Of a stretch of DNA of 8,317 bases, positions 1 to 8,317 are shown piece after piece. The stretch spans positions 1 through 8,317 of the forward strand of contig CAMLNJ010000107.1 in assembly GCA_946481225.1 (NCBI GenBank). Reading direction: 5' to 3'. This DNA comes from an uncultured Verrucomicrobiota bacterium. Its GTDB lineage: Bacteria > Verrucomicrobiota > Verrucomicrobiae > Opitutales > Opitutaceae. The translations under genes were made by a program, and so were the position numbers. How positions within the stretch are numbered: position 1 is the first letter of the stretch; every line of letters begins with the position of its first letter. Under the pieces are notes generated by a model. It ran no database searches and was not told the DNA's origin. It was given only the letters and a program-made list of their open reading frames with translations.

Positions 1-520
<520 letters not shown>

Positions 521-546: not shown

Positions 547-570
547 CGGCTCACGCCGGTCTCCGAACCA

Positions 571-611
571 AAGGTCCTATAGGCCCAAGAAGCCTGTAGG
601 ACCTTTTTTTT
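571..611 (+). terminator. Rho-independent terminator of icd
   Basis: The left arm AAGGTCCTATAGGC (571-584) and right arm GCCTGTAGGACCTT (592-605) pair over 14 bp with a single T-G wobble. They enclose a 7-nt loop and run directly into eight Ts (604-611). This is a textbook intrinsic terminator for + strand transcription out of icd. Read on the minus strand, the same stem is followed only by TTTGGTT, so it could act weakly on read-through from the convergent sensor-kinase gene ending at 708. No better terminator for that gene is visible. Confidence 0.93.
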
Positions 612-674
612 GAGCCCCCCCGGAAAAGTTGCAGCACGTCCGTCCGCGACCGTGTTCCTCCCACCTGGATGCCG

Positions 675-707: not shown

Positions 708-3700
708 TCACGCCGCGCGAGTCGGCGGAGGCGCTCCGGGTGGCGCGACGGAGTCGCCTTGCGGCCCGCGTTGGGCTTGCGGCAATTCCAAGATGAACGT
801 GGCACCCGTGCCGGGGCCGGCGCTTTGCGCGACCAGCTTGCCCCCCATTTCGCGGGCGGCGTTGGCGCTGTCGTGCAGGCCGAAGCCGGGGCCCGTGGCG
901 CGGGTGATAAAGCCGTGGCTGAAGATGCGCGTGAGGTTTTCCGGCGAAATGCCGGCGCCGTTGTCGGTGATGGCGATGGCGACGGTGCCGCCGACGCCTT
1001 TGGCCGCATGGATGAACAGGGCCTTGTCCGGCCGGCCCGAATCGTTGCACGCCTGCTCGGCGTTGCAGATGAGATTCACGAGGATCTGGAGCACCTTGTA
1101 TTTGTCCGCGCTGACGGCGGGCGGTGCTTCGAATTCCGTGCGGACGACGATGCCATGCTTCTGGAGCGAGGCTTCGGTCATCCGGAGGGCGTCGGCGACG
1201 AGGTCGGGGACGCCGAGGGTTTCAACCACGACGGAGCCGTGCGCGAAGCTTCGCTGTTTGGCCAGGATGTCGTTGATGAATTCGATGTGCCTGCAAAGGG
1301 TGTCCAGCTCCGCAAGGTTGCTCTCCTGTTCGTGGGCCAGGTGTTCGCTCAGCAGCCGCAGATAGCCGGGCAACCGAACGCCTTGGGGGTCGGTGGCGAG
1401 GAAGCGGCCGAGGTCGGCCGCGTGTTTATCCAGCAGGGCGACGGCTTTGGCGAAGTTGGCCTGTTTGGAATGGCGGGCGCGCTCGGCCATGAGATGGGCG
1501 GAGACGTTCACGCTGTTGAGGACGTTGCCCACGTTGTGGAGGATGCCAGCGGCCACCTCGGCCATGCCCGCCCGACGGGAGGCGTCGATGAGACGCCGGT
1601 TGATTTCCGCCGCCTCGGCCTCGATGCGTTTGCGTTCCGAGATGTCGGTGCAAATGGCCATGTAGGCCCGCGGTTCGCCATGCTCGTCCAACATGGGCCC
1701 GATGGCGGCATCCACCCAGTAGAACCGGCCGTCTTTGGCGCGGTTCTTGATTTCACCGTGCCAGACTCTGCCGGAAGCGAGGGTTTCCCAGATCTCCCGG
1801 TAAAAGGAATCCGCGTGGTGGCCCGACTTAAGCAGGCGATGATTTTGTCCGAGGAGTTCGGCGCGGGGGTAGCCCGAAACCCGGCAAAAGTTGTCGTTGA
1901 CGTAGGTGATGGCGCCCTGCCGGTCGGTGCGCGAAATGATGCAGGCGGTGTCGAGCACGGTGTTGACGGCCGCCAGGGATTGGAGGGTCTCGGTAAGTTT
2001 TTCCTGCGTGGCCCGGCGCTCGATGATCTCCGCTTCGAGTTCGGCGGTGCGCTCCTGCACGCGGATTTCCAGTTCATGGCTGCGCCGGTAAAGGCGCCGC
2101 ACCCGCAGCCGGTAGGCGATGACGACCAGGCCCAGAAATCCGGCGGCCGCGGCGCCGCGGAACCACCAGGTCGCCCACCACGGCGGGAGGATCACCACGC
2201 GCAGGGAGGCGCCCTGCTCGTTCCAGAGTCCGTCGTTGTTGGCTGCCTTGACCCGGAAGACATAGCGGCCGGGCGACAGTCGCGTGTAGGTGGCGTAGCG
2301 CCGCTTGACCCCGGAGTAACGCCAGTCCTCGTCGAAGCCCTCCAGTTTGTAGGCGTAGCGGTTCTTCTCCGGCGCGGTGTAGCTCAACGCCACGAACTTG
2401 AAGGTGAATATGGACTGCTTGTGCGTGAGTGTGAGTTCCTCGGTGACGTTGATCGCCTGCTTCAGCGGAGAGTCCTTCCCGCCGATTTCCGCCGGCTTGT
2501 TGAACAGCTCGAAGCCCGTCAGCGCGACCGGCGGCGGATGCGGGTTGTCCGCCATTTGATCCGGGCGAAACACGGCGAGACCTTCGGTGCTGCCAAAGAA
2601 CATCAGTCCGTCGGGTGCCGTGGCGGCGGCGCCGACGAAAAATTTCTCCCCCGGCAATCCGTCCGCTTTGTCGTAGTTGCGGAACCGGCCCTGTGCGGGG
2701 TCGAAACGGGACAGTCCCGCGGTCGTGCCGAGCCAGAGCCGGCCCTGCTTGTCGCGCTGGATGGAATGCACGCTGTCCGAGGGCAGTCCGTCCTTTTTCG
2801 TGTAGCGGCGGGTAAAGCGGCCCGAAGCCGGATCAAACCGAAACAGCCCCGAAAGCGTGCCCACCCACATTTCCCGCGGGCCGTCCCGGTCGATATGGAC
2901 GGACATCAGGGAGCGGTTGATCTCGCTCTCGGGATGCTCCGGATCGATGAGGTAGGTCGTGAAGACCGCGGTCGCCGGGTCGACCCGCGTCAAGCCGCCT
3001 TCACCGGCGAGCCAGAGGAAGCCGTCGCCGTCCTTGGCGATGCCGAAATTCAAATTGAACGCGAGGCGCTTTGGATCCGCGGGATCGGCCGTGTAGTGGG
3101 TGAAGGTCTTGCCATCATAGCGCCCCACCCCTTCCGCCCAGTAAAGGATCCACACGTTGTCCGAGTCATCCGTCGCCAGGGCCCAAATTTTGTCGGACGC
3201 CGGGCTGTTTGGATTGTTCGGGTCGTGCGGATAATGGGTGACGGCGTCCCCTTGGATACGAAAGAGCCCTTGAGGAAAGGCGCCGACCCAGATCCGCCCT
3301 TGCCGGTCCTCCACGACGGAGTGCGTATCCGTGGCGATCGAGTGCTTCACCGGCGGGCGGCAATCGTCGAGGTAGTCGAGACCGCCCAAGGTGCCGATCC
3401 AGGCGCGGTTGTTTCGGTCTACATGGATCGATTCGACGATGTTGTTGCGCAGACTATTCGGGCTCCCGGGATTGCCGCGATAGACTTGGAACTTCTCCGG
3501 CTCGCTCGGCAGCCGCACGACACCGTGCAGATGGGAAGTGGCCCAGACGGCTCCCGTGCGGTCGTCGCACACATTGTTGATCGAAGCCGCGCAATAGCTC
3601 ACGGGGTCACTCGGGTCGGCAAGGACGTGCGTGAAAACGCCGCGGCTGCGATCCAGGAAATTCGTCCCCCTCGGCGTGCAAACCCAGAAACGTCCGGCCC

Positions 3701-4661
3701 GATCTTCGTGGAGCGCCCAGACATAGTCGTCGCTGATGCTGCCGGGCTCCTTCGGATTATGGCGGTGGTGGACAAAGGTCCTGGTTTCCGGCACGAAGCG
3801 ATCCAAGCCGCCCTCGGTGCCGACCCAAAGCACGCCCTCCTTGTCTCGGAGAAAGCACGTCACGTCCTTGCCGGCGATGCTTCCGGGATCATTGGGATCG
3901 GGCTGATAGGCGGTGAATTCGCCGGTTTCCGGGTCGAGCACGCAGGCGCCGGTCGCGATGGTTCCCACCCAGAGTCGTCCATCTTTCGGATCGGCGAAGA
4001 CCGAACGAACCGCGGCGCTGCTCAGGCTGCGCGGATTCTTCGGGTCATGCCGGTAGGTCGTGAATTTGCCGGTTTTGGGATCCAGCCGGCTCAAACCCTT
4101 TTCCGTGCCCACCCAGATCGCGCCGACGGCATCTTCGCAAAGCGCCGTGACGACCGTGTCGCAAAGCGAGGTGTCGTCGCCCGGAACGGGGCGATATGCG
4201 GTAAAATCGTCCGTGTCGCGATGGTAGCGGTTCAGGCCGCCATCCGTGCCGACCCACAAGGTTCCCTGGCGGTCGAGCAACAGGGCGGTGACGTTGTTAC
4301 GGCTCAGACTCCGAGCATTGCCCTCCTCGTTCTGGTAGATCTTGAACTCGCAGCCATCGTAACGGTTCAAGCCGCCCCTCGTCGTGCCGAACCACATGAA
4401 CCCCTGGGGATCCTGCACGACGGAGCTCATGGCCGAATCCGAGAGACCGTCCGCCGCGGTCAGATGACTGAAACGAAAAGGCGGTGACGAGGACGGGGTT
4501 TGGGCTTCGGCCGCGGCGGCGGAGGCGAACGTTCCGGAGATCCGGGCCGGTGCGGCATCGCCGTCCTTTTCGCCGGCTGCGGAGCGGGCGGACAGGAGCG
4601 AAACCGCTACCTGCAAGAGAGCGATGGCGGCCAGCCGCGAGATGGCTTCTCTGGCCGTCAT
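708..4661 (-). CDS. Two-component sensor histidine kinase with a double beta-propeller sensor (Reg_prop / Y_Y_Y / PAS / kinase), 1317 aa
   Basis: Predicted inner-membrane sensor kinase. A signal peptide (Arg4 and Arg9, hydrophobic 10-23, cleavage near 29) precedes a periplasmic region of 14 Reg_prop-like blades (about 65-702; W[VLI]GT...GL.R.D motifs) and a Y_Y_Y domain (about 745-826; YKLEGFDEDW, LSPGRYVFRV). One membrane segment (about 834-851) leads to a cytoplasmic coiled coil (857-897), PAS/PAC (898-1010) and the kinase core: H-box GILHNVGNVLNS with His1042, N-box NLICNAEQA (Asn1196, Asn1200), G1 DNGAGI (1233-1238), F-box IFSHGF and G2 GPGFGLH (1257-1263). Such sensors resemble Bacteroides HTCS proteins that detect glycan fragments, but here the receiver and AraC output domains are absent, so a separate response regulator is needed; none is adjacent. 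The ligand cannot be named. The ATG start at 4661 is favoured by the signal peptide and a GAAGG 10 nt upstream. It lies 191 bp after the triple-receiver kinase on the same strand. Confidence 0.93.
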   Translation of the reverse strand: MTAREAISRLAAIALLQVAVSLLSARSAAGEKDGDAAPARISGTFASAAAAEAQTPSSSPPFRFSHLTAADGLSDSAMSSVVQDPQGFMWFGTTRGGLNRYDGCEFKIYQNEEGNARSLSRNNVTALLLDRQGTLWVGTDGGLNRYHRDTDDFTAYRPVPGDDTSLCDTVVTALCEDAVGAIWVGTEKGLSRLDPKTGKFTTYRHDPKNPRSLSSAAVRSVFADPKDGRLWVGTIATGACVLDPETGEFTAYQPDPNDPGSIAGKDVTCFLRDKEGVLWVGTEGGLDRFVPETRTFVHHRHNPKEPGSISDDYVWALHEDRAGRFWVCTPRGTNFLDRSRGVFTHVLADPSDPVSYCAASINNVCDDRTGAVWATSHLHGVVRLPSEPEKFQVYRGNPGSPNSLRNNIVESIHVDRNNRAWIGTLGGLDYLDDCRPPVKHSIATDTHSVVEDRQGRIWVGAFPQGLFRIQGDAVTHYPHDPNNPNSPASDKIWALATDDSDNVWILYWAEGVGRYDGKTFTHYTADPADPKRLAFNLNFGIAKDGDGFLWLAGEGGLTRVDPATAVFTTYLIDPEHPESEINRSLMSVHIDRDGPREMWVGTLSGLFRFDPASGRFTRRYTKKDGLPSDSVHSIQRDKQGRLWLGTTAGLSRFDPAQGRFRNYDKADGLPGEKFFVGAAATAPDGLMFFGSTEGLAVFRPDQMADNPHPPPVALTGFELFNKPAEIGGKDSPLKQAINVTEELTLTHKQSIFTFKFVALSYTAPEKNRYAYKLEGFDEDWRYSGVKRRYATYTRLSPGRYVFRVKAANNDGLWNEQGASLRVVILPPWWATWWFRGAAAAGFLGLVVIAYRLRVRRLYRRSHELEIRVQERTAELEAEIIERRATQEKLTETLQSLAAVNTVLDTACIISRTDRQGAITYVNDNFCRVSGYPRAELLGQNHRLLKSGHHADSFYREIWETLASGRVWHGEIKNRAKDGRFYWVDAAIGPMLDEHGEPRAYMAICTDISERKRIEAEAAEINRRLIDASRRAGMAEVAAGILHNVGNVLNSVNVSAHLMAERARHSKQANFAKAVALLDKHAADLGRFLATDPQGVRLPGYLRLLSEHLAHEQESNLAELDTLCRHIEFINDILAKQRSFAHGSVVVETLGVPDLVADALRMTEASLQKHGIVVRTEFEAPPAVSADKYKVLQILVNLICNAEQACNDSGRPDKALFIHAAKGVGGTVAIAITDNGAGISPENLTRIFSHGFITRATGPGFGLHDSANAAREMGGKLVAQSAGPGTGATFILELPQAQRGPQGDSVAPPGAPPPTRAA
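2556..4469 (-). repeat. Coding repeat region: 14 tandem propeller blades of the sensor kinase
   Basis: Blade signatures of the W.GT..GL.R.D kind fall near residues 90, 136, 183, 231, 279, 326, 373, 421, 458, 504, 550, 599, 643 and 688, with a period of about 44-49 residues except a short 37-residue step between 421 and 458. Loops between blades often carry a DP..P.S motif (for example near 206-213, 255-261, 302-308, 479-486). Fourteen blades fit two seven-bladed propellers, the known layout of HTCS sensor domains. Blades near 326, 373 and 504 are degenerate (WVCTPRG, WATSHLHG, WILYWAEG). The repeats are protein-level; their DNA has diverged. Confidence 0.85.
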
Positions 4662-4723
4662 ATTGTTGGAACCTTCGTATGGCCGGTGGTCATGTCAAAT
4701 CCTATGCCATTGTCGCGCACAGA

Positions 4724-4731
4724 CTAATTAG
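4724..4731. promoter_or_regulatory. Palindrome CTAATTAG upstream of the propeller kinase (possible operator)
   Basis: A perfect 8-bp palindrome sits in the only AT-rich patch of the gap, about 63-70 bp before the kinase start codon. Symmetric AT-rich sites in such a position often bind dimeric regulators, but the flanks are not symmetric and no second copy is seen in the window. A candidate only. Confidence 0.2.
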
Positions 4732-4810
4732 AAACTTTCCCCCGCCTACATCGTTGCCTTCCGTCGGCGGTCCGCGCGACTGCGTCCGGGACCACAGGCT
4801 ATAACCACAG

Positions 4811-4841
4811 GCGGGCGTGCGCGTCCCGGGCGTGCGCCCGC
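4811..4841. repeat. GC-rich inverted and direct repeats just after the triple-receiver kinase
   Basis: GCGGGCG (4811-4817) is the exact reverse complement of CGCCCGC (4835-4841). Within this, GGGCGTGCGC occurs twice (4813-4822 and 4828-4837), and CGGGCG/CGCCCG (4827-4832, 4835-4840) makes an alternative compact hairpin. The cluster starts 12 bp beyond the stop codon on the minus strand. No U-tract follows, so Rho-independent termination is unlikely. It may act as an mRNA 3'-end stabiliser or be part of a dispersed repeat. Confidence 0.45.
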
Positions 4842-4852
4842 CGCGCTCGCCC

Positions 4853-6925
4853 TCAAGCGGCGGCAGGTGCCTGCTCGTCCTGGTCCGAGGCGGCCTGGGC
4901 ATCGGCTTCGAGCGTGAAGAAAAAAGTGGCGCCTTGCCCGACCGCGCCCTCCGCCCACACACGCCCGCCGTGGCGCAGGACCACGCGCGACACCGTCGCC
5001 AACCCGATCCCGGTGCCTGGAAACTCTTCCATCGAGTGCAAGCGCTGGAACGGGCCAAAGAGCTTGGCGCCATAGCGCATGTCGAAACCCGCGCCGTTGT
5101 CCTGGACAAAATAGACAGCCGGCCCGGCCTCGCCCGTTCGCCGGCCAAACACGATGCGGGCCCTATTGCGCTTGGACGTGAATTTCCAAGCGTTTCCCAG
5201 CAGGTTCTCGAGCAGGATGCGCAACAAGCCCGGATCACCCTCCGCGGTCAGCCCCTTGGCGATTTCCACCTCGGCGTCCGTCTTCGGGAACGCCGACAGG
5301 AGGCCCGCCACGACCTCGCCCGCCATCGCGCTTAGATCGACCTGCACTATCTTCAACTCCTTCCGGTTCACGCGCGCCAGGCTCAACATGTCGTCGATCA
5401 GCCGGCCCATGTGCTGCGTGGCCTCGCGCACTCTCCCGAGAAAATATCGCTCTTCCTCGGCGAGCTTTTCGAAGGCGGAGGTCAGAAGCAGTTGGCTGTA
5501 ACCGTCTATCCCGCGAAGAGGCGCGCGCAAATCGTGCGACACCGAGTAGCTGAACGACTCGAGCTCCCGATTGGCCGCGTCGGCGATTTCCTTCGCCCGC
5601 CGCAACTCGACGTTGGCGCGGTGCAGCTCGGTATTCTTCGCCTCGAGGTCGGCGATGAGCGAGGCGCGGGTCCCGGCCAGCTCGCGCAGGGCCTGGACCT
5701 CCACCGCCTCGATTTCGCGGCGATGAAGCTGCTCGCGGATCCGGCGATTCTCGTCCTCGAACTGCTTGCGGCGGAGCTGGGCGCGCAGCCGCGCCTTCAG
5801 GATCTCGAAGTCCCCGGACTTGGTGATGTAGTCGTCGGCGCCGGCGTTGATCCCCTCGATCATCGCCGCGCTTTCCTCCATCGCCGTCAGAATGATGAGG
5901 GGGATGTCCCGCCACGCCGGATGCGCCTTGATTCGCTGGCAGGTTTCCTTGCCCGACATCTCCGGCATCAGCAGGTCGAGCAGGATGCCGTCCACCGCCT
6001 GGCTGCCGAGCAACTCCAGCGCCTCCGGACCGGAATGCGCCGCCACGACATCGTAGCCCTCCGTGCGAAGTTCGTCGCAAAGCTCGCCCAAAAACGTGGG
6101 GCTGTCGTCCACCGCCAAAACGCGCTTCGGCGCGAGCAGGCTGGGTAGCGCCGCGCCGGCGGCCGGGCTCGGCGCGGCGCGAAGCAGCGCCGTGAGCTTG
6201 GCGAGGACGACCGCCACGCCTACGTGCTTTTGAATAAAGGCGTCCGCCCCCGCCTCCAAGGCGCGCAATTCGTCCGCGCGGCTTTCCGAGGCGGTGAGCA
6301 GCATGCACGGGGTCCGCCGCAGCGCGGCGTCGGCGCGCAGCCGCCGGATCGCCTCCGCCCCGTCCATCCCCGGCAGCATCTGGTCGACGGCCGCCGCGTC
6401 CGGCCGCAGATCGGCGGCCAGCCGCAGGCCCTCCTCGGCCGTCGGGGCCACCACGACCTCGTGTCCCGCCTCCTCCAGCGCCCCGCGCAACTCCTCCGCG
6501 AAAGTGGGGCTGTCCTCGATCAGCAGGACCAAGGGGCGCTCCCGCGAGCGCCCTTCGCGCGGGCTCACGAGTTCCCGGGCGCGCGCCACCATCTGCGCGG
6601 AGTCGTAAGGCTTCCCCACGTAGTCGTCCGCGCCCGTCTTGAGGCCGCGGACCCGATCCTTCACCTCGTCCTCCGAGGAGAGCAGCAGCACCGGCAGGCC
6701 GGCGGTGGCGGGCGAGGACTTTAGCTCCTGCAAAAAATCCAACCCGTCGCCGTCGGGGAGCAGCACGTCGAGGATCGCCAGGTCGAAGCTTCGCCGCCGG
6801 CAGGCGTCGCGCGCCGCCTCGATGGTCGCGCACAGAGTGGTTTCAAACCCCGCCGCATCGAAGGATTCCTTCAAATCCATCCGGACGGTGATGCTGTCAT
6901 CGATGATGAGAACACTCGGTTTCAT
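4853..6925 (-). CDS. Hybrid response regulator / histidine kinase with three N-terminal receiver domains (690 aa)
   Basis: A soluble cytoplasmic phosphotransfer protein; no signal peptide or membrane segment is visible. REC1 (about 1-122): Asp9/Asp10, phospho-acceptor Asp53, Lys105 followed by Pro. REC2 (131-250): acidic Glu137/Asp138, Asp181, Thr211, Lys233 but no cis-Pro after it. REC3 (267-385): Asp273/Asp274, Asp317, Thr347, Lys369, also lacking the Pro. A charged coiled coil (385-455) leads to a phytochrome-like HisKA domain (SYSVSHDLRAPLRGIDGYS, His464) and HATPase: N-box LENLLGNAW (Asn574, Asn578), G1 DNGAGF (609-614), G2 GTGIGL (637-642). The ATG at 6925 overlaps the cheB stop as ATGA; the frame stays open farther upstream, but that part is cheB in another frame. 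Its position after cheB suggests that the chemosensory CheA phosphorylates its receivers, which then control its kinase. No DNA-binding or GGDEF domain is present, so its own target is unknown. Confidence 0.94.
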   Translation of the reverse strand: MKPSVLIIDDSITVRMDLKESFDAAGFETTLCATIEAARDACRRRSFDLAILDVLLPDGDGLDFLQELKSSPATAGLPVLLLSSEDEVKDRVRGLKTGADDYVGKPYDSAQMVARARELVSPREGRSRERPLVLLIEDSPTFAEELRGALEEAGHEVVVAPTAEEGLRLAADLRPDAAAVDQMLPGMDGAEAIRRLRADAALRRTPCMLLTASESRADELRALEAGADAFIQKHVGVAVVLAKLTALLRAAPSPAAGAALPSLLAPKRVLAVDDSPTFLGELCDELRTEGYDVVAAHSGPEALELLGSQAVDGILLDLLMPEMSGKETCQRIKAHPAWRDIPLIILTAMEESAAMIEGINAGADDYITKSGDFEILKARLRAQLRRKQFEDENRRIREQLHRREIEAVEVQALRELAGTRASLIADLEAKNTELHRANVELRRAKEIADAANRELESFSYSVSHDLRAPLRGIDGYSQLLLTSAFEKLAEEERYFLGRVREATQHMGRLIDDMLSLARVNRKELKIVQVDLSAMAGEVVAGLLSAFPKTDAEVEIAKGLTAEGDPGLLRILLENLLGNAWKFTSKRNRARIVFGRRTGEAGPAVYFVQDNGAGFDMRYGAKLFGPFQRLHSMEEFPGTGIGLATVSRVVLRHGGRVWAEGAVGQGATFFFTLEADAQAASDQDEQAPAAA

Positions 6926-6940
6926 GACGGAAGAGCCGTC
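6922..6940 (-). promoter_or_regulatory. ATGA stop/start overlap with a hairpin directly before the ATG (translational coupling)
   Basis: The cheB stop TGA (6924-6922) and the start ATG of the triple-receiver kinase (6925-6923) share two bases. Immediately 5' of this ATG on the minus strand, GACGG (6940-6936) and CCGTC (6930-6926) form a perfect 5-bp stem with a 5-nt loop. No purine-rich Shine-Dalgarno stretch is visible there. Translation of the kinase probably depends on ribosomes terminating on cheB, which would also melt the stem. Confidence 0.6.
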
Positions 6941-7995
6941 GGACGCGGAACGAGCCCCGCCAACGTGGAAGCGAACTGGTCCAGCGGCAACACCCGCGCG
7001 GCGGCGTCCAGCCGGATCGCCTCCCGGGGCATGCCAAAAACCACGGAACTGCCTTCGTCCTGCGCGAAGGTGGCCCCGCCCGTGCGGCGGATGGCGAGCA
7101 GCCCCTCCGCGCCGTCGCGCCCCATGCCGGTGAGCAGGCAGGCGGCGGCGCGCGGTCCCAGCTCGCCGGCGACGGAGTGAAAGAGCACGTCCACGGAGGG
7201 ACGGCAGGAATGCCGCTCCGGATCTTGCGTCAGGCGCAGCCGGCCGTCGCGAACGACAAGGTGCTGGTCCGGCGGAGCGAGGAGCACGCGACATTCGCCC
7301 GGGCGCGGCAGGACTTCGTTGTCGCGCGCGAATTCGACCGGAAAGGGCGAAAGACCGTTCAACCACTCCGCGAAGGCGGGCCCGAACGCGCGGCTGAGAT
7401 GGATGACCACCAAAAGCGGCAGCCGAAAATCGCGCGGGAGATGGTTCAGGATATGCACGATGGCGGCCGGCCCGCCGGTCGAAGCGCCGATGGCCACCAG
7501 CTCGCATTCCGCCCGGGAGACGGCCGGGCCCGGGACGGACGCGACAGCCGCGCCGCCCGCGAGGTGCTTCAACCGGGCGCGCGGATGGGTGATGACCTTG
7601 ATCCGCGAGATCAGCCGCAAAGTGGAGACCAGTTGCCGCTCCCACGCCGGATCGGAGGCGTCGCCCCGCGGCTTCTCCAGCACGTCGAGCGCCCCCGCGG
7701 CCAGCGCGTCGTAGGTCTTGAACAACTCGCCCCGATTGAAAGAAGACGAGACGACGAGGATCGGCGTAGGGCAGTAGGCCATGATGTATTCGGTGGCGGC
7801 CAGGCCGGTCATCACGGGCATCATCATGTCGAGCGTCATGACATCGGGCCGCAGCCGCTGGCAGGCCTCGATCGCCTCCCGACCGTCGTTGGCCTCCGCC
7901 ACCACTTCGAAATCGGCCTGCGCCTCGAGCACCTCCACGATGCGTTTGCGCACCGTGATGGAATCGTCCGCGACAAGAATCCGGAGTCGTTTCAT
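6922..7995 (-). CDS. cheB: CheB: chemotaxis response regulator protein-glutamate methylesterase (357 aa)
   Basis: CheB removes methyl groups from glutamates of chemoreceptors (and can deamidate glutamines), giving adaptation; phosphorylation by CheA activates it. The receiver domain (1-125) has Asp10/Asp11, phospho-acceptor Asp56, Ser83-85 and Lys108-Pro109. A linker (about 126-163) leads to the esterase domain with the catalytic triad in family context: Ser172 in GASTGG, His199 in VVIHL, Asp294 in LTGMGRDGA. The ATG at 7995 was chosen because it starts the receiver strand MKRLRILVADDS, overlaps the upstream stop as ATGA and has GGGGAG (8009-8004) at 8-nt spacing; the longer upstream reading has no homology. 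Length matches normal CheB. It lies between a CheA-type receiver and a triple-receiver kinase, as WspF does in Wsp-like operons, so it may serve a non-flagellar pathway. No receptor, CheR or CheW gene is in the window. Confidence 0.97.
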   Translation of the reverse strand: MKRLRILVADDSITVRKRIVEVLEAQADFEVVAEANDGREAIEACQRLRPDVMTLDMMMPVMTGLAATEYIMAYCPTPILVVSSSFNRGELFKTYDALAAGALDVLEKPRGDASDPAWERQLVSTLRLISRIKVITHPRARLKHLAGGAAVASVPGPAVSRAECELVAIGASTGGPAAIVHILNHLPRDFRLPLLVVIHLSRAFGPAFAEWLNGLSPFPVEFARDNEVLPRPGECRVLLAPPDQHLVVRDGRLRLTQDPERHSCRPSVDVLFHSVAGELGPRAAACLLTGMGRDGAEGLLAIRRTGGATFAQDEGSSVVFGMPREAIRLDAAARVLPLDQFASTLAGLVPRPTALPS

Positions 7996-8009
7996 GACAA
8001 CAGCTCCCC
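7992..8009 (-). promoter_or_regulatory. Ribosome binding site and ATGA overlap at the cheB start
   Basis: GGGGAG (8009-8004) lies 8 nt before the cheB ATG and inside the end of the upstream gene. The upstream stop TGA (7994-7992) and the ATG (7995-7993) share two bases. This decides the cheB start and shows that the two genes are translationally coupled. Confidence 0.8.
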
Positions 8010-8317
8010 GATGCGCTGCAACAAACGCCGCTGGTCGAATTCGCCCTTGATCACATAGTCCTGCGCGCCGACCGCGAGGCCGCGCAGTCGGTCCTCTCGC
8101 GAGTCGCGCGAGGTGACGAGGATGGCGGGCAACTCCCGCCACGCCGGCTCGGCGCGAAGACGTTCCACCAGCGTGAACCCGTCCATCCCCGGCATCTCCA
8201 CATCCACCAACACCAAGGAGTAATCGCCGGCCTTCAACCGTTCGAGCGCCTCCTCGCCGGAAACCGCCACGTCCACCGAATAACCGGCCGACTCCAGGAT
8301 GCTTTGCTCCAACATCC
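7992..8317 (-). CDS. C-terminal receiver domain of a probable CheA-type hybrid histidine kinase (partial, 5' end outside window)
   Basis: The visible 108 codons are most of a receiver domain, still open at the right edge. The Met at 8315 is almost certainly internal, since the receiver's first strand and its acidic pair are missing. Numbering from that Met: phospho-acceptor Asp38 in LVLVDVEMPGMDGF, Thr68 in AILVTS, Lys90 in DYVIKGEFDQRRLL. The MLEQSILESAGY start and the KGEFDQ..LL ending are, in my recollection, typical of receivers fused to the end of CheA kinases (as in WspE or FrzE). The gene runs into cheB by an ATGA overlap, which supports that reading. In such hybrids the receiver usually serves as phosphate sink or modulator of the kinase. 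A stand-alone CheY-like regulator or another hybrid kinase cannot be excluded without the upstream sequence. Confidence 0.8.
   Translation of the reverse strand, partial: MLEQSILESAGYSVDVAVSGEEALERLKAGDYSLVLVDVEMPGMDGFTLVERLRAEPAWRELPAILVTSRDSREDRLRGLAVGAQDYVIKGEFDQRRLLQRIGELLS

What the first reader, a model, noticed from the sequence alone, without database searches (positions are those of the whole stretch)
4853..8317. Wsp-like chemosensory operon whose output slot is a triple-receiver histidine kinase
Seen: a CheA-type receiver end, cheB and a REC-REC-REC-kinase gene joined by two ATGA overlaps. Known: in Wsp systems the gene after the CheB homologue (WspF) encodes the diguanylate cyclase WspR. 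Inference: here the signal is passed to a second kinase through up to three receivers, making a cascade (CheA to hybrid kinase to unknown regulator) rather than a direct output. All three receivers keep the acceptor Asp (53, 181, 317), so several phosphorylation states are possible.
Basis: partly seen in the sequence, partly recalled or inferred. Interest (0 to 1): 0.7.

Follow-up and report, generated by a model that had tools for sequence, protein, structure and literature searches.

The report
Chemosensory operon ending in triple-receiver kinase
A bacterial chemotaxis-like gene set seems to pass its signal to a second kinase through three switch domains instead of directly to an output protein; such kinase-to-kinase chains are already known, but this three-switch version recurs in several bacterial phyla and often sits beside a likely next partner.

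Summary
In detail: a CheA receiver tail, cheB and a REC-REC-REC-HisKA-HATPase gene are joined by two 4-nt overlaps; D53, D181, D317 and H464 are present. The window cuts the operon. Three relatives (receiver part 75-80% identical) show the rest: cheW-cheR(TPR)-cheW-mcp-cheA(REC)-cheB-REC3HK. All seven genes in this order were detected in 11 of 16 loci that reach far enough, from several phyla.

The cascade idea is plausible but not new in kind: R. centenum Che3 (CheA3 to CheS3-REC1; CheS3 to CheY3) was shown biochemically, Burkholderia Wsp H-systems use the hybrid kinase WspH instead of WspR, and about 40% of response regulators in cheR-TPR clusters carry a kinase module. Membership of Wsp is not supported.

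Added here: (i) a likely next partner, an Rcp1-type single-domain regulator directly downstream in 7 of 19 loci, absent from this window; (ii) unequal receivers: of 359 listed homologues the acceptor Asp is kept in 359 for REC2, 358 for REC1, 240 for REC3, all REC3 losses lying in the Actinoplanes-search set; (iii) a predicted unbroken helix from REC3 into the kinase.

Verdict: new variant of a known kind.

The parts
7992..8315 (-). 3' end of cheA: C-terminal receiver domain of a CheA-REC kinase (cut by the window edge)
   Evidence: Pfam Response_reg; 86% identity over 106 aa to the C-terminal REC of the full CheA of L114
6922..7995 (-). cheB: REC + methylesterase, 357 aa; 4-nt overlaps with both neighbours
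4853..6925 (-). REC3-HK: three receivers (acceptors D53, D181, D317), long helical stalk, HisKA (H464) + HATPase_c, 690 aa; no PAS domain reported by Pfam
   Evidence: AlphaFold2 model shows one helix over residues 373-483 running from REC3 into the HisKA domain (pTM 0.34, so domain packing is not reliable)
708..4661 (-). Next gene on the same strand after a 191-nt gap: Reg_prop/Y_Y_Y/PAS/HATPase sensor kinase without REC; occupies the place where several relatives have an Rcp1-type regulator; probably not part of the conserved operon
   Evidence: it was not the best-scoring query at any place in L096, L097, L103 or L113-L116 (weaker matches under better ones were not shown)

Best explanation
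This is the end of an ACF-type chemosensory operon (cheW-cheR/TPR-cheW-mcp-cheA/REC-cheB-REC3HK). The membrane chemoreceptor with CheW sets CheA activity; CheR/TPR and CheB adapt the receptor; the CheA receiver is probably a phosphate sink. CheA-P phosphorylates the N-terminal receivers of REC3-HK (REC1 and/or REC2 most likely). The receivers, joined to the kinase by a continuous REC3-to-HisKA helix, turn the bacteriophytochrome-type kinase up or down, and the kinase phosphorylates an Rcp1-type single-domain regulator (encoded next door in several relatives; elsewhere or absent in this genome). Shown: gene content, order, domain and residue conservation, adjacency of the Rcp1-type gene in some relatives. 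Inferred: every phosphotransfer step, its sign, and the final output.
For: Conserved order in several phyla; receptor with two hydrophobic stretches in L114; cheB/REC3HK overlap in 17 of 20 loci; CheB and REC3 identities covary, Mantel r 0.91, 0 of 9999 permutations as high, n 17 (60; expected of any two co-inherited genes); CheB's alpha1 and beta5-alpha5 regions resemble REC1 most although whole-domain identity is about equal; REC1 and REC2 acceptors nearly universal in 359 listed homologues; Rcp1-type gene directly downstream in 7 of 19 loci (45) while only 2-9 such genes were found per genome in 10 genomes; the neighbouring copy is its genome's best match in 4 of 6 genomes (G1024, G980, G353, G411; not G442, G004; the query's own genome G1006 left out). 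Its solved relatives include bacteriophytochrome regulators and Rcp1; the kinase's best solved relative is the RpBphP2 kinase domain. Precedent: PMC3868531.
Against: No phosphotransfer can be tested here. The window has no Rcp1-type gene beside REC3-HK, and 12 of 19 loci lack one there: two have a REC-(PAS)-HK-REC gene instead, L103 a REC3-GGDEF gene, L009 fused C-terminal receivers, the window an unrelated kinase, and seven nothing that matches the reference set used, among them all three Actinoplanes-type loci. The kinase domain looks swapped in L009 and L103 (read by eye), so the partner cannot be the same everywhere. REC1, the favoured CheA target, is degenerate in L103. The specificity comparison is small and not significance-tested; against CheA's own REC the beta5-alpha5 region does not favour REC1 (0.35, 0.35, 0.38).
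Confidence: 0.68

Rival explanations
1. Internal relay: REC3-HK autophosphorylates and passes phosphate to its own receivers, which act as sinks or relay steps, with CheA acting only on CheB and its own REC; co-transcription serves co-expression, not phosphotransfer.
For: Hybrid kinases can phosphorylate their own receivers; RodK has three RECs and its kinase selectively phosphorylates the third (stated in PMC3868531, section 12). REC3 is the receiver nearest the kinase.
Against: REC3 has lost its acceptor in 119 of 120 proteins of the Actinoplanes search while REC1 and REC2 keep theirs. The kinase domain looks swapped in L009 and L103 while the operon context is kept. [quoted passage not shown]
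Confidence: 0.15
2. Integrator: the three receivers take phosphate from different kinases (CheA plus one or more other kinases of the cell), so the protein sums a chemosensory and a two-component input before driving its output.
For: Acceptors in all three receivers kept in the 120 closest homologues listed; receivers differ in the alpha1 specificity region; REC-(PAS)-HK-REC genes lie just downstream in L002, L004 and L096-L099.
Against: No partner kinase is conserved with the operon; REC3 loss in the Actinoplanes-search set and REC1 loss in L103 show that not all inputs are needed.
Confidence: 0.15

Closest known systems
Rhodospirillum centenum Che3 system (CheA3/CheS3/CheY3), PMC3868531 (abstract, passages and sections 9, 10, 12 read)
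   Same: Same component list (MCP, two CheW, CheR, CheB, CheA with terminal REC, an N-terminal-REC histidine kinase and, in several relatives here, a single-domain regulator); a demonstrated flow from CheA to hybrid kinase receiver, and from hybrid kinase to single receiver.
   Different: CheS3 has two RECs (only REC1 phosphorylatable), a PAS and an HWE kinase; here three RECs, no PAS, a HisKA kinase nearest to bacteriophytochromes and an Rcp1-type regulator. Sequence homology of CheS3 to REC3-HK was not tested.
Wsp H-systems (WspH) of Burkholderia, PMC8552884 (passages read)
   Same: Wsp operon in which a hybrid histidine kinase/response regulator takes the place of the diguanylate cyclase WspR.
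   Different: wspH is upstream of the operon and appears to be its own unit; wspA-wspF synteny; reported from beta- and gammaproteobacteria. WspH was not compared by sequence here.
Pseudomonas Wsp (WspR) system; P. fluorescens region L113 used as yardstick
   Same: MCP, two CheW-type genes, CheR, CheA, CheB and a REC-containing output.
   Different: Order MCP-CheW-CheR-(CheW)-CheA-CheB-output (the second CheW assigned by position and recall) against CheW-CheR-CheW-MCP-CheA-CheB-output; WspR is REC-GGDEF; neither CheA nor the window CheB is clearly nearest to the wsp copy.
cheR-TPR clusters of the ACF family, PMC3447774 (passages and section 9 read)
   Same: CheR-TPR plus multidomain regulators; about 40% of the regulators carry HisKA + HATPase; additional RECs are mentioned.
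   Different: The parts read do not describe this three-receiver family or an Rcp1-type partner; its supplementary tables were not read.

Membership tests
Wsp system | Gene order MCP-CheW-CheR-CheW-CheA-CheB | tested here: not met
   Relatives have CheW-CheR-CheW-MCP-CheA-CheB; the P. fluorescens yardstick has MCP first
Wsp system | WspR (REC-GGDEF) or WspH (hybrid kinase) output | tested here: inconclusive
   No GGDEF in the window gene; it is a REC-HK type with three RECs; homology to WspH not compared
Wsp system | CheB nearest to WspF among the CheBs of a Wsp-bearing genome | tested here: inconclusive
   Window CheB: 210.8 bits to another P. fluorescens CheB, 197.4 to the wsp CheB; over 18 family CheBs the wsp copy is best for 11, the other for 7. 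alone favoured the wsp copy only because the other was matched in two pieces
Wsp system | CheA nearest to WspE | tested here: not met
   L004 CheA: 216 bits to a 2110-aa frame, 203 to the wsp CheA, 152 to a third; one query, margin small
ACF chemosensory class | CheR-TPR, CheA with terminal REC, multidomain response regulator | tested here: met
   L114: CheR with TPR_19 just above its cut-off (26.5 against 25), CheA with Hpt/HATPase/REC, REC3-HK
ACF chemosensory class | CheA classed as ACF by CheA phylogeny or class model | not tested
   No class models at hand; PMC10746217 reports an ACF class in three Actinoplanes species (passage), not linked here to these loci
CheS3-type cascade | N-terminal receiver(s) with acceptor Asp before a histidine kinase, encoded in a che cluster | tested here: met
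CheS3-type cascade | Two RECs + PAS + HWE kinase | tested here: not met
   Three RECs, no PAS, HisKA
CheS3-type cascade | Dedicated single-domain regulator phosphorylated by the second kinase | tested here: inconclusive
   Rcp1-type gene adjacent in 7 of 19 loci but not in the window; phosphotransfer not testable here
Rcp1/bacteriophytochrome-type regulator (downstream gene in relatives) | Sequence match to solved Rcp1/RcpA/RcpB/BphP regulators | tested here: met
   L098 protein: 8avv (bacteriophytochrome,response regulator) 7.1e-26, 1jlk (RCP1) 1.1e-21, 1k66 (RcpB) 1e-19, 1k68 (RcpA) 4.7e-19; higher still 5brj, 5ic5, 5te9 and 6xvu, named only response regulator or CheY

The most novel reading that the evidence does not exclude
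A recurrent operon in which a chemoreceptor array drives a bacteriophytochrome-type two-component pair (kinase + Rcp1-type regulator), the photosensory module being replaced by three receivers that read CheA and at least one further kinase, so that one protein computes a combined chemosensory and two-component decision.
Probability: 0.25. Interest if true: 0.6.

Novelty: new variant of a known kind. Interest (0 to 1): 0.4.

Why it matters
It gives a defined, recurrent family in which a chemosensory array appears to feed a second kinase, names a likely next partner that can be tested with purified proteins, and supplies a natural experiment (REC3 acceptor lost in the Actinoplanes-search set, REC1 acceptor lost in one Myxococcota-group genome) on which receivers are needed. 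Actinoplanes missouriensis, where gene disruption is done (PMC11064477), encodes a member (P0274).

Tried and rejected
Rejected: lone CheY upstream; order confined to this genome; a cheB-REC3 fusion, P0195, which on reading looks like a frame-shifted artefact; my own first claim that CheB is nearest to WspF, which rested on split matches and fell when full-length proteins were compared. A promoter scan of 4500-5000 found no sigma-70-like site; a plasmid search found no match at E 1e-50.

Void or weak: the DNA-pattern search of 149 genomes found nothing, but its own positive control G002 also gave 0, so it shows nothing. The search in the phylum of G008 (0 of 288) scored at most 6 candidates per genome in the rows shown and had no positive control; the later family search of 250 genomes found 3. 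Left out of counts: L007 (fragment), duplicates L081-L093 and L100-L102, and L010 where REC3 or downstream sequence was needed. The AlphaFold model has pTM 0.34; only a local helix was used. The top fold matches (LvrB, PleD; rmsd 13.6-36 A) were not used. The window's taxonomy is inferred: two close homologues are named Opitutae bacterium, and the family of G098 was chosen by IDH similarity; the window's genome is not held. Literature statements rest on search in CC-licensed PMC papers only; PMC10782961, PMC9239204 and PMC2829493 were seen only as passages.

Full report
WHAT IS THERE. On the minus strand of the window lie, in order of transcription, the end of cheA (8315-7992, open at the window edge), cheB (7995-6922, 357 aa) and a 690-aa gene (6925-4853) with three receiver domains, HisKA and HATPase_c; each junction is a 4-nt ATGA overlap. 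The first is a CheA end: 91 of 106 aligned residues match, without gaps, the terminal receiver of a full-length CheA with Hpt, HATPase_c and REC in L114. A Reg_prop/Y_Y_Y/PAS/HATPase kinase follows after 191 nt, and a monomeric isocitrate dehydrogenase end lies on the other strand.

THE WHOLE OPERON IN RELATIVES. The window's genome is not held. Three genomes of the family of G098, chosen because its isocitrate dehydrogenase end is the closest found (88%), carry the gene with 75-80% identity over the receiver part (3 of 250 genomes). Their loci L114-L116 show cheW, cheR, mcp, cheA, cheB and REC3HK in one order. The second cheW, missed by tblastn there, was read and confirmed by Pfam in L114; in L115 and L116 it was only read. 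Over all loci, 16 reach back past cheR. All seven genes in the order cheW-cheR-cheW-mcp-cheA-cheB-REC3HK were detected in 11 of them: L001, L002, L004, L005, L006, L008, L094, L096, L097, L103 and L114. In L096 the mcp and cheA matches are each split into two pieces. The other five are L115 and L116 (second cheW only read), L003 and L010 (second cheW not detected) and L009 (mcp upstream on the opposite strand). By record title, by the group searched or by the labels printed, the loci come from Chloroflexota, Acidobacteriota, Myxococcota, Planctomycetota, Actinomycetota and the window's own family. Occurrence is patchy: 8 of 199 genomes in the phylum of G004 (two of them, G004 and G007, already known), 2 of 140 in that of G003 (one already known), 1 of 151 in that of G001 (G001 itself), 0 of 288 in that of G008, the last without a positive control.

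COUPLING. The 4-nt cheB/REC3HK overlap occurs in 17 of 20 loci. CheB and receiver-part identities covary across 17 loci (Mantel r 0.91, 0 of 9999 permutations as high), as expected of genes inherited together.

THE RECEIVERS. D53, D181, D317 and H464 are invariant in the 25-row alignment. Among 359 listed homologues from three searches (each lists only its best 120, so these are not random samples), the acceptor Asp is kept in REC1 in 358, in REC2 in 359 and in REC3 in 240. All 119 REC3 losses lie among the 120 proteins of the Actinoplanes search, where none of the 120 keeps Asp at either position of the acidic pair or Lys at the conserved Lys, and one keeps the Thr. The single REC1 loss is the L103 protein itself. 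A few listed proteins differ or have gaps at other pocket positions. In the loci, REC3 is degenerate in L005, L006, L008 and L009 and REC1 in L103; L009 also lacks the second acidic residue of REC2. So three working receivers are the rule in the window's own branch but not a requirement of the family. In the specificity regions CheB's receiver resembles REC1 most (alpha1 identity 0.45, 0.36, 0.26 for REC1, REC2, REC3; beta5-alpha5 0.38, 0.24, 0.19), while whole-domain identity is about equal (0.26, 0.28, 0.25; n 16). This points weakly to REC1 as CheA's target; compared with CheA's own receiver the beta5-alpha5 region does not favour REC1 (0.35, 0.35, 0.38), and L103 is a counter-example.

THE KINASE AND ITS LIKELY PARTNER. 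The predicted model has one helix from residue 373 to 483, from the last helix of REC3 into the HisKA domain (pTM 0.34, so domain arrangement is not trusted). Among solved structures the kinase is closest by sequence to 8f71, the RpBphP2 bacteriophytochrome kinase domain, which also appears among the fold matches. In 7 of 19 loci with downstream sequence (L004, L097, L098, L099, L114, L115, L116) the next gene is a single-domain regulator of the Rcp1/bacteriophytochrome-regulator type (the comparison with solved structures was made for the L098 protein only). Such genes number 2-9 per genome in the ten genomes checked (E 1e-15). The neighbouring copy is its genome's best match in G1024, G980, G353 and G411, not in G442 or G004; in G1006 it is the query. 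Adjacency is thus unlikely to be a base-rate effect, though the loci are related by descent. Of the other 12 loci, L002 and L096 have a REC-(PAS)-HK-REC gene (in L096 lying in two frames), L103 a REC-REC-REC-GGDEF gene 25 nt downstream, L009 extra receivers fused to the kinase, the window the unrelated kinase, and L001, L003, L005, L006, L008, L094 and L095 nothing that matches the reference set. The window holds no Rcp1-type gene; the only notable matches fall on its own receivers.

IS IT WSP? The component list agrees, the order does not, and sequence does not settle it: among the CheBs of one P. fluorescens genome, the wsp CheB is best for 11 of 18 family CheBs and another CheB for 7, the window among the latter (210.8 against 197.4 bits); for the one CheA tried the wsp CheA came second (216 and 203 bits).

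WHAT IS KNOWN. In R. centenum Che3, CheA3 with its receiver mutated phosphorylates REC1 of CheS3 (wild-type CheA3 was not seen to do so in vitro), CheS3 and not CheA3 phosphorylates CheY3, and phosphorylated REC1 is proposed to turn the CheS3 kinase off (PMC3868531: abstract, passages and sections 9, 10, 12). Burkholderia Wsp H-systems use the hybrid kinase WspH instead of WspR; 206 of 794 wsp clusters were of this type (PMC8552884, passages). About 40% of response regulators in cheR-TPR clusters carry a kinase module (PMC3447774, section 9). Ten paper searches brought up no description of this three-receiver family or of an Rcp1-type partner; they cover openly licensed PMC papers only, and for most papers only the listing was seen.

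A TRACTABLE RELATIVE. Actinoplanes missouriensis encodes a member (P0274). Its che 3 cluster is said not to seem related to zoospore chemotaxis (an unpublished result mentioned in PMC11064477, section 13); whether that is the cluster with REC3-HK was not tested.

VERDICT. Observation confirmed; interpretation partly supported; a new variant of a known kind, of moderate interest because it offers a testable partner and a natural experiment on receiver need.

Noticed in passing
window 708-4661 (-): Large Reg_prop/Y_Y_Y/PAS/HATPase sensor kinase with no receiver or DNA-binding domain reported by Pfam, in the place where several relatives have an Rcp1-type gene.
   Followed up: partly
window 2-520 (+): C-terminal end of a monomeric isocitrate dehydrogenase, used to find close genomes (88% identity in G098 and G095).
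   Followed up: partly
window 570-614: A hairpin-like sequence followed by a run of T between the isocitrate dehydrogenase end and the Y_Y_Y kinase, read by eye; looks like an intrinsic terminator but was not scanned.
   Followed up: no
L103 11562-13601 (+): REC-REC-REC-GGDEF protein 25 nt after a REC3-HK whose own REC1 is degenerate: a possible diguanylate cyclase output one step further on.
   Followed up: partly
L096 14210-15652 and 15682-16092 (+): A CHASE8-HAMP kinase with a 54% identical kinase domain, followed by an Rcp1-type match, near the REC3-HK of the same genome.
   Followed up: partly
L009 10757-13690 (+): REC3-HK-type protein of 977 aa with degenerate REC3, a different-looking kinase domain and extra receiver-like sequence at its C-terminus (read by eye).
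   Followed up: partly
homologues P0122-P0239: Proteins that share the three-receiver module with longer kinase parts, some with Hpt; several are named as Burkholderiales-type or Rhodospirillaceae bacteria. Their gene neighbourhoods were not seen.
   Followed up: no
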